Program-made: the position numbers and the translations under genes
The notes under the pieces: model-generated
The model's database searches: none
Told to the model about the DNA's origin: nothing
Seen by the model: the letters and a program-made list of their open reading frames with translations, nothing else
Assembly: GCA_023253905.1 (NCBI GenBank)
Contig: JALREG010000214.1
Coordinates: forward strand, 1-8,480
From: Burkholderiaceae bacterium
GTDB lineage: Bacteria > Pseudomonadota > Gammaproteobacteria > Burkholderiales > Burkholderiaceae
Length of the DNA stretch: 8,480 nucleotides
Direction of reading: 5' to 3'
Shown: positions 7,872 through 8,394 of the stretch, piece after piece
Layout: each line of letters starts with the position of its first letter
Position numbering within the stretch: position 1 is the stretch's first letter

Positions 7872-8388
7872 GGCGCTCTCCTGTGAGGCGCCACAACGCC
7901 TCGCGATATTTGTCGGCGGTCTGTGCGACCACCTGCGCCGGCAGAGGCGGCGCGGGCGGGCACTTGCCCCAGCCGGCGAGGGTTTCCAGATAGTCGCGTA
8001 CGAACTGCTTATCGAAGGACGGAGGCGATCTGCCCACCTGATACTGGTCGGCAGGCCAGAACCGCGAGGAGTCAGCAGTGAGCACTTCATCCATCAGATA
8101 GAGCGTGTCGTCGGCATCCAGCCCGAATTCAAATTTGGTATCGGCAATGATGATGCCGCGTTCGGCCGCATTTTGAATGTCAGCGTTGATGCCTGGCTTG
8201 CCACGCCGCCCGGCTGCCCACGACAACTCGTAGCGGCTGGAAAGTGAGTTGAATCCAGTGAGTGAGTAGTCACCGCTGAGCGCTAGGGGGACGCTATCAA
8301 ACTGGACGTTCGCCGTGCCATTTGCATATTTTTGGCCAAAGCGCAGATTGCCGCCTGTCCAGGTCGATTTAACATTTGCAACAGTCAT
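7864..8388 (-). CDS. purC: Chimeric reading frame: phage-like N-terminus fused to C-terminal part of SAICAR synthase (PurC)
   Basis: The C-terminal 100 or so residues (bases about 7864-8163) are clearly SAICAR synthase: RGIIIADTKFEFGLD, a DEVLTADSSRFWPADQY block, and GRSPPSFDKQFVRDYLE, ending in a KYREALWRLTGE segment. PurC normally joins CAIR and aspartate with ATP and is about 290-300 aa; the N-terminal two thirds, including the KVRDLY-type ATP-binding segment, is absent. In its place about 75 residues beginning MTVANVKSTW and containing RRGKPGINADIQN continue in the same frame. Those look like no part of PurC. I use the ATG at 8388, which has GAGGAGG 6 nt upstream; an ATG at 8394 abuts that site directly. 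As written the product could not be an active SAICAR synthase. The gene heads the purE-purK-sua5 run. It is either an assembly chimera or a recombination product; purC of the organism may be intact elsewhere. Confidence 0.8.
   Translation of the reverse strand: MTVANVKSTWTGGNLRFGQKYANGTANVQFDSVPLALSGDYSLTGFNSLSSRYELSWAAGRRGKPGINADIQNAAERGIIIADTKFEFGLDADDTLYLMDEVLTADSSRFWPADQYQVGRSPPSFDKQFVRDYLETLAGWGKCPPAPPLPAQVVAQTADKYREALWRLTGERLG
7869..7882 (-). promoter_or_regulatory. Ribosome binding site and TTG start of purE
   Basis: On the minus strand AGGAG (7878-7882) is followed by 6 nt and then TTG (7869-7871). The site lies inside the last codons of purC, so ribosomes finishing purC would end 8 nt inside purE. 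This decides the purE start. Confidence 0.65.
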
Positions 8389-8394
8389 ATCCAT

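What the first reader, a model, noticed from the sequence alone, without database searches (positions are those of the whole stretch)
8155..8394. In-frame join between PurC and a phage-like protein at a short shared stretch
Seen: the minus-strand frame runs from MTVANVKSTW... through GINADIQNAAE straight into RGIIIADTKFEFG, a core PurC block. The PurC N-terminal two thirds is missing. Composition changes at the same point. The join falls on the codons for Ala-Ala-Glu (8161-8169), which would be natural both in the PurC helix before RGIIIADTKFEFG and, as I recall, in phage proteins with a NADIQNAAEATR-type segment. A short shared stretch of this kind is what both an assembly misjoin and microhomology-driven recombination would leave. 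If real, it would be a capture of a host purine gene end by a phage, or disruption of purC by phage DNA. Phages carrying purC-like genes are known, but a fusion to a virion-type N-terminus would be new. A misassembled contig end is the more cautious reading.
Basis: partly seen in the sequence, partly recalled or inferred. Interest (0 to 1): 0.7.

Follow-up and report, generated by a model that had tools for sequence, protein, structure and literature searches.

The report
Phage–purC join is an assembly chimera
The apparent fusion of a phage protein to the end of a bacterial purine gene is almost certainly an artefact: a short stray piece of phage DNA attached to the end of a bacterial contig at a few shared letters.

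Summary
The minus-strand frame 7864-8388 joins 76 residues of a phage protein to the last 98 of a PurC, at the Ala-Ala-Glu codons 8161-8169. It is almost certainly not biological. The phage gene runs through the join in 15 of 15 viral loci, full length (277 residues, no gap) in 12. In the two closest bacterial relatives fetched, purC runs through the join, with an aldolase gene behind it. Of 31 proteins like the phage part, only the window's own carries PurC, on an 8480-base contig. ATGCGGCCGAA (8161-8171, 11 nt) fits both sides, and the join lies in the register where the two genes are about most alike over 45 nt. The bacterial side opens into the most conserved 24-mer of purC, where contigs of two other genomes also end. 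The phage piece is 320 nt and ends 3 nt short of the axis of a strong phage hairpin. This fits a chimeric fragment or misjoin at a contig end. No reads were available. Side result: that hairpin is conserved with compensatory changes.

The parts
1..8160 (.). Bacterial chromosome: acyl-CoA dehydrogenase C-terminus, MFS transporter, phosphatidylserine decarboxylase, MaoC-like dehydratase, nicotinate phosphoribosyltransferase, Sua5, PurK, PurE, purC 3' third
   Evidence: Pfam matches; one blastn match each to L115 (window 3057-8171, 87%) and L116 (4732-8171, 88%); L113 matches in the same order in five pieces between 355 and 8149 (85-88%), without window 3726-5087 and parts of the MFS gene
7864..8160 (-). 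purC 3' part: 98 codons plus stop, corresponding to residues 202-299 of a 299-aa PurC
   Evidence: SAICAR_synt E 5.4e-24 for this piece alone; intact 299-aa relatives P0033, P0034, P0035 and P0037 at 92-95% over this part
8161..8171 (-). Join: up to 11 nt (ATGCGGCCGAA) that fit both the bacterial and the phage side
   Evidence: Bacterial blastn matches of L115 and L116 stop at 8171; in the alignment to phage loci agreement stops after GAA, 8161; L104 has TATGCGGCCGAG and L105 CATGCGGCAGAA; phage loci L096 and L099 have AACGCGGCCGAA, L005 and L010 AATGCGTCCGAA
8161..8388 (-). 5' end of a phage structural-operon gene (277 aa in relatives, concanavalin-like C-terminal region)
   Evidence: 15 viral loci; full-length gap-free match in 12 of 15; SO2946-like_C and Laminin_G_3 matches around the cut-off
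8408..8422 (-). Small hairpin GGCGG-AACCA-CCGCC upstream of the phage ribosome-binding site, invariant in the five phage versions aligned
8427..8480 (-). One arm of a long phage inverted repeat; the contig ends 3 nt before its axis

Best explanation
The join is an artefact of library making or assembly. A contig of an uncultured bacterium, by its relatives of Burkholderiales type, broke inside purC at the gene's most conserved DNA stretch. A 320-nt piece of an unrelated tailed phage, ending at a strong hairpin, became attached to it at up to 11 shared nucleotides, in the register where the two genes are about most alike. I think a chimeric library fragment (one strand switching template, or two strands annealing, at the similar stretch) is about twice as likely as an assembler or scaffolder step that accepts a short end overlap; one search moved me from even odds to this. 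The in-frame reading follows from both genes having Ala-Ala-Glu in frame there. Shown: both parent genes are intact elsewhere, the overlap and the local similarity exist, and the fusion was found on this contig only. Inferred: the artefactual step itself.
For: 1) Uniqueness: of 31 proteins matching residues 1-79, only P0002, the window's own, carries the PurC domain, and its contig is 8480 bases; the junction DNA was in 0 viral contigs. 2) The phage gene passes the join in 15 of 15 viral loci, as a gap-free 277-residue match in 12; 3 of 3 of these checked have no stop. 3) purC passes the join in L104/L115 and L105/L116 (PurC 94% and 90% identical to P0033, no stops), with class-II fructose-bisphosphate aldolase next; 79 of 80 genome-contig loci hold purC, 3 of them cut short. 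4) Shared 11 nt. 5) Between phage gene (L005, L010) and purC (L104, L105), the 45-nt window at the join has 27 identities; 4, 12, 4 and 7 of 676,240 windows do as well or better. 6) Of 282 positions over 86 purC copies the 24-mer starting at codon 203 is the most often shared; the join is at codons 199-201. 7) Contigs G036:C204 and G051:C24 end at window positions 8149 and about 8166. 8) The phage piece ends 3 nt short of the axis of a hairpin with z = -9.3. 9) The phage protein matched 0 of 74 genomes of the family searched; control 3 of 3 phage records.
Against: No reads or coverage were available. Eleven nt is shorter than usual assembly k-mers (recalled), so a chimeric fragment or a scaffolding step must be assumed. 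The phage piece, 320 nt, is longer than one typical short read, so phage reads must have extended it. Real recombination would also favour the similar stretch, so one search does not separate artefact from event; at 24 and 30 nt the windows at the join are not the best (712-2,905 of 711,247 and 95-109 of 701,155 do as well or better), though the best 24-nt window lies on the same register 20 nt on. The frame is open and has a ribosome-binding site. Contig ends here are few: 2 of the 65 genomes with a purC match, and none of the 3 cut purC copies. Nothing explains why the phage piece should begin at 8161 other than the similarity. No DNA was available for the nearest phage protein (P0003) or nearest PurC (P0033), so both sides of the overlap are read from more distant relatives. 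Blastn alignments to L001-L010 run on to 8141 with gaps, because of that local similarity.
Confidence: 0.94

Rival explanations
1. Real illegitimate recombination: phage DNA joined into purC of some cells at the short similar stretch, leaving a truncated and probably non-functional purC.
For: 11 shared nt at the join; the join lies in the register where the genes are about most alike over 45 nt; open frame across it.
Against: No second example found; the phage side is an interior point of a virion-operon gene, which passes this point in 15 of 15 viral loci; loss of the N-terminal two thirds of PurC should break purine synthesis (inference); the phage protein matched 0 of 74 genomes of the bacterial family.
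Confidence: 0.045
2. A prophage integrated in purC, with the window showing one prophage edge.
For: Phage DNA directly abuts chromosome.
Against: The abutting phage DNA is the middle of the head-tail operon, not an integrase/att edge; 0 of 74 family genomes match the phage protein.
Confidence: 0.01
3. A phage that captured the 3' end of a host purC and fused it to a virion-protein N-terminus.
For: A phage family of PurC exists (phrog_1112).
Against: Beyond purC lie 7.8 kb more of bacterial genes; the purC piece is 92-95% identical to PurC proteins of 299 aa and matches phrog_1112 only weakly (E 3.7e-4); a PurC protein matched 0 of the 15 viral loci. The 40 loci were not searched for PurC.
Confidence: 0.005

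Closest known systems
Chimeric contig, or chimeric read with microhomology
   Same: Two unrelated genomes joined at a short shared stretch near a contig end, found once only
   Different: Nothing tested differs; the reads that would prove it were not available
PurC, SAICAR synthetase (PF01259)
   Same: Residues 77-174 of P0002 are an ordinary PurC C-terminal third
   Different: N-terminal two thirds absent in the window
277-aa protein of an uncultured tailed phage's head-tail operon, with SO2946-like / concanavalin-like C-terminal region
   Same: The phage part of P0002 is 99% identical to P0003
   Different: The C-terminal 200 residues or so, with the concanavalin-like region, are absent

Membership tests
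Assembly or library chimera | Junction occurs in one contig only | tested here: met
   P0002 alone of 31 proteins has PurC; junction DNA in 0 viral contigs.
Assembly or library chimera | Each side continuous through the join in relatives | tested here: met
   Phage gene passes the join in 15 of 15 loci, full length in 12; purC intact in L104, L105 and their longer forms L115, L116
Assembly or library chimera | Short shared stretch at the join | tested here: met
   8161-8171, 11 nt, within a wider similar stretch
Assembly or library chimera | Few or no reads span the join; coverage differs on its two sides | not testable with these tools
   No raw reads held
Functional PurC (SAICAR synthetase) | Complete SAICAR_synt domain including its N-terminal part (the GKVRD segment is recalled as nucleotide-binding) | tested here: not met
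   Profile entered at 160 of 233; the four best of 8 solved PurC sequences align to intact P0033 from residue 14 or 15 to 295 or 297
Integrated prophage at purC | Junction at a phage att/integrase edge | tested here: not met
   In the phage relative L005 the gene lies in the head-tail operon; no complete phage genome or att site was examined

The most novel reading that the evidence does not exclude
A rare but real event in which an infecting tailed phage's DNA was joined into the host's purC at an 11-nt shared stretch, making an in-frame hybrid of a virion-protein N-terminus and the PurC C-terminal third.
Probability: 0.04. Interest if true: 0.35.

Novelty: not a real feature. Interest (0 to 1): 0.05.

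Why it matters
It matters as a caution. A clean, open, in-frame fusion with a plausible ribosome-binding site can come from a chimera at a contig end, and the predicted protein (P0002) carries a PurC Pfam label in a large protein collection. If the junction were real it would be an uncommon case of phage DNA joined into a purine gene, most likely harmful to the cell.

Tried and rejected
Searches that found nothing useful. Phage records searched with the 79-aa piece and with the 277-aa P0003: no match. DNA searches of phages and plasmids matched only within window 8102-8160, the conserved purC stretch. Exact searches for the expected phage DNA and for the junction: 0 viral contigs. Rfam: 0 matches in the window, L129 and L005. 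Pfam and PHROGs gave no match above cut-off or E 0.001 for the phage N-terminus; the PHA_gran_rgn match (E 0.023, below its cut-off) is taken as chance.

Considered and rejected: prophage edge, phage capture of purC, and a Mu-like phage end carrying host DNA (the phage continues on both sides of this point in its relatives).

Not done: a larger survey of where contigs end inside purC. In one search seven purC matches, in seven genomes, look cut short, at codons 57, 60, 87, 186, 200, 206 and 239 (I leave out G018, which reaches 273, and the weak G034). I checked only the contig ends of the two at 200 and 206. In one search, 3 of 79 are cut, at codons 73, 239 and 244. The two most conserved stretches start near codons 203 and 250, so the cuts lean towards them, but numbers are small and these are match ends, not always contig ends.

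A slip: the last line printed ('rank 37231') used a register shifted by one codon and is wrong; one search repeated the comparison with checked translations.

Papers: two searches; I saw listings and abstract starts only and opened no paper. [quoted passage not shown] That assembly k-mers exceed 11 nt, and that some scaffolders join ends on about 10 nt, is recalled.

Full report
What is there. The minus-strand frame 7864-8394 is open, and the database protein P0002 starts it at 8388. Its last 98 residues (7864-8160) are the C-terminal third of PurC (SAICAR_synt, E 5.4e-24 for that piece). Its first 76 residues are 99% identical to the start of a 277-aa protein, P0003. Relatives of this protein lie in viral contigs (15 loci, 40). 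In L005, the one examined gene by gene, the gene lies between a 154-aa gene that follows the major head gene and the head-tail adaptor and tail genes. Its C-terminal part has matches around the cut-off to SO2946-like_C and Laminin_G_3 (4 proteins tested).

The rest of the window is ordinary chromosome: acyl-CoA dehydrogenase, MFS transporter, phosphatidylserine decarboxylase, MaoC-like, nicotinate phosphoribosyltransferase, Sua5, PurK, PurE. 79 of 80 also hold purC, 3 of these cut short. Going from one of them to its family in the whole-genome set (74 genomes, 65 with a PurC match) gave closer relatives: G040 (PurC 94% identical to P0033) and G038 (90%). Their contigs match the window without a break, at 87% (window 3057-8171) and 88% (4732-8171), and then go on into the rest of an intact purC, followed by a class-II fructose-bisphosphate aldolase gene.

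The exact join. On the minus strand the window reads ...CAAAATGCGGCCGAA|CGCGGCATCATC.... Phage relatives follow the window up to GAA and then have GCGACT where the window has CGCGGC. L001, L003, L005 and L010 read AATGCGTCCGAA here; more distant phage loci L096 and L099 read AACGCGGCCGAA. The closest purC genes with DNA at hand read TATGCGGCCGAG (L104) and CATGCGGCAGAA (L105) before CGCGGC. So ATGCGGCCGAA, 8161-8171, fits both sides. P0033, P0034 and P0035 have Ala-Ala-Glu-Arg here and P0003 has Ala-Ala-Glu-Ala, in the same frame.

The two genes also resemble each other just beyond the join (phage AAEATRMIADPDFE, PurC AAERGIIIADTKFE). I compared every ungapped window of L005 and L010's phage gene with every one of purC from L104 and L105. 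At 45 nt the window at the join has 27 identities, and only 4 to 12 of 676,240 windows, its own neighbours included, do as well or better. At 24 nt the best window of all (18 of 24) lies on the same register 20 nt further on, but the windows within 12 nt of the join are beaten or equalled by 712 to 2,905 of 711,247; at 30 nt by 95 to 109 of 701,155. So the join sits where the genes are about most alike over a few tens of nucleotides. That favours a strand switch between them, in the tube or, less likely, in a cell.

Why it is an artefact. First, nothing else found carries the join: of 31 proteins similar to residues 1-79, only the window's own has the PurC domain (I read 7 of the sequences and the Pfam column and lengths of the rest), and no viral contig holds the junction DNA. 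Second, both parent genes run through the point. Third, the bacterial side opens into the most conserved DNA of purC: over 86 purC copies the 24-mer starting at codon 203 is the one most often shared exactly (12.8% of pairs, median over positions 0.6%; first of 282). Shared words make assembly graphs ambiguous, and contigs of two other genomes of the family end here: G036:C204 starts at the equivalent of window 8149 and G051:C24 ends at about 8166. Fourth, the outer end of the phage piece, window 8480, aligns to L010 position 577, 3 nt short of the axis of a long inverted repeat that folds far better than shuffles (z = -9.3). So there is a likely stopping place at the bacterial end and another at the outer phage end. 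Why the phage piece begins at 8161 is explained only by the local similarity. Fifth, the phage protein matched none of the 74 family genomes (the same query matched 3 of 3 phage records), though absence from 74 genomes says little about an infecting phage.

What speaks the other way. There are no reads. Eleven nucleotides is too short for an ordinary k-mer overlap (recalled), so a chimeric fragment or a scaffolding step has to be assumed. Real recombination would use the same similar stretch. GC content does not change sharply at the join: the best change-point is 7982. Only 2 of 65 genomes show contig ends here, and none of the 3 cut copies in the other set is cut here. The public metagenome contigs, where a second example would most likely be, were not open to scanning.

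Function, if it were real. The PurC part lacks the N-terminal two thirds. The four best solved PurC sequences match intact P0033 over nearly its whole length, so a piece of 98 residues is not expected to be an enzyme, and the phage part lacks its C-terminal region. No working product is expected (inference).

Side result. The hairpin whose arm forms the end of the window is a conserved phage feature. Five distinct versions (L005, L010, L011, L012, L129) give one predicted structure of 55 pairs, 10 of them outside the long hairpin; 16 pairs show changes on both sides that keep the pair in at least one sequence. This does not decide whether it acts as RNA or as a DNA palindrome. Of the other viral loci folded (L013-L015, L096-L100), which match the protein only in part, none showed this hairpin at the place examined.

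Noticed in passing
window 8427-8480; L005:4856-4968; L010:515-635; L129 upstream of 2001: Long phage hairpin (arms of about 50 nt, AT-rich tip) upstream of the 277-aa gene in the head-tail operon; 16 of 55 predicted pairs show changes on both sides across five versions; no Rfam match in L005 and L129. Could be an RNA processing or attenuation element or a DNA site.
   Followed up: partly
window 8408-8422: A small hairpin GGCGG-AACCA-CCGCC just before the phage ribosome-binding site is invariant in the five phage versions aligned, while much around it varies.
   Followed up: no
L113 (G036:C204) base 1; L114 (G051:C24) base 7283: Two genome contigs end inside purC within about 12 nt of the join point.
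   Followed up: partly
L113; window 3726-5087 and parts of 665-2098: The related contig L113 matches the window in the same order but lacks the stretch holding most of the nicotinate phosphoribosyltransferase gene and parts of the MFS gene.
   Followed up: no
window 5081-5196: The open frame holding nicotinate phosphoribosyltransferase (+) and the Sua5 frame (-) overlap tail to tail by 116 bases.
   Followed up: no
plasmids collection, NZ_CP119142.1 and NZ_CP119140.1: Two Neisseria records of about 2.17 Mb, the size of a chromosome, are listed in the plasmid collection; they matched only the conserved purC stretch.
   Followed up: no
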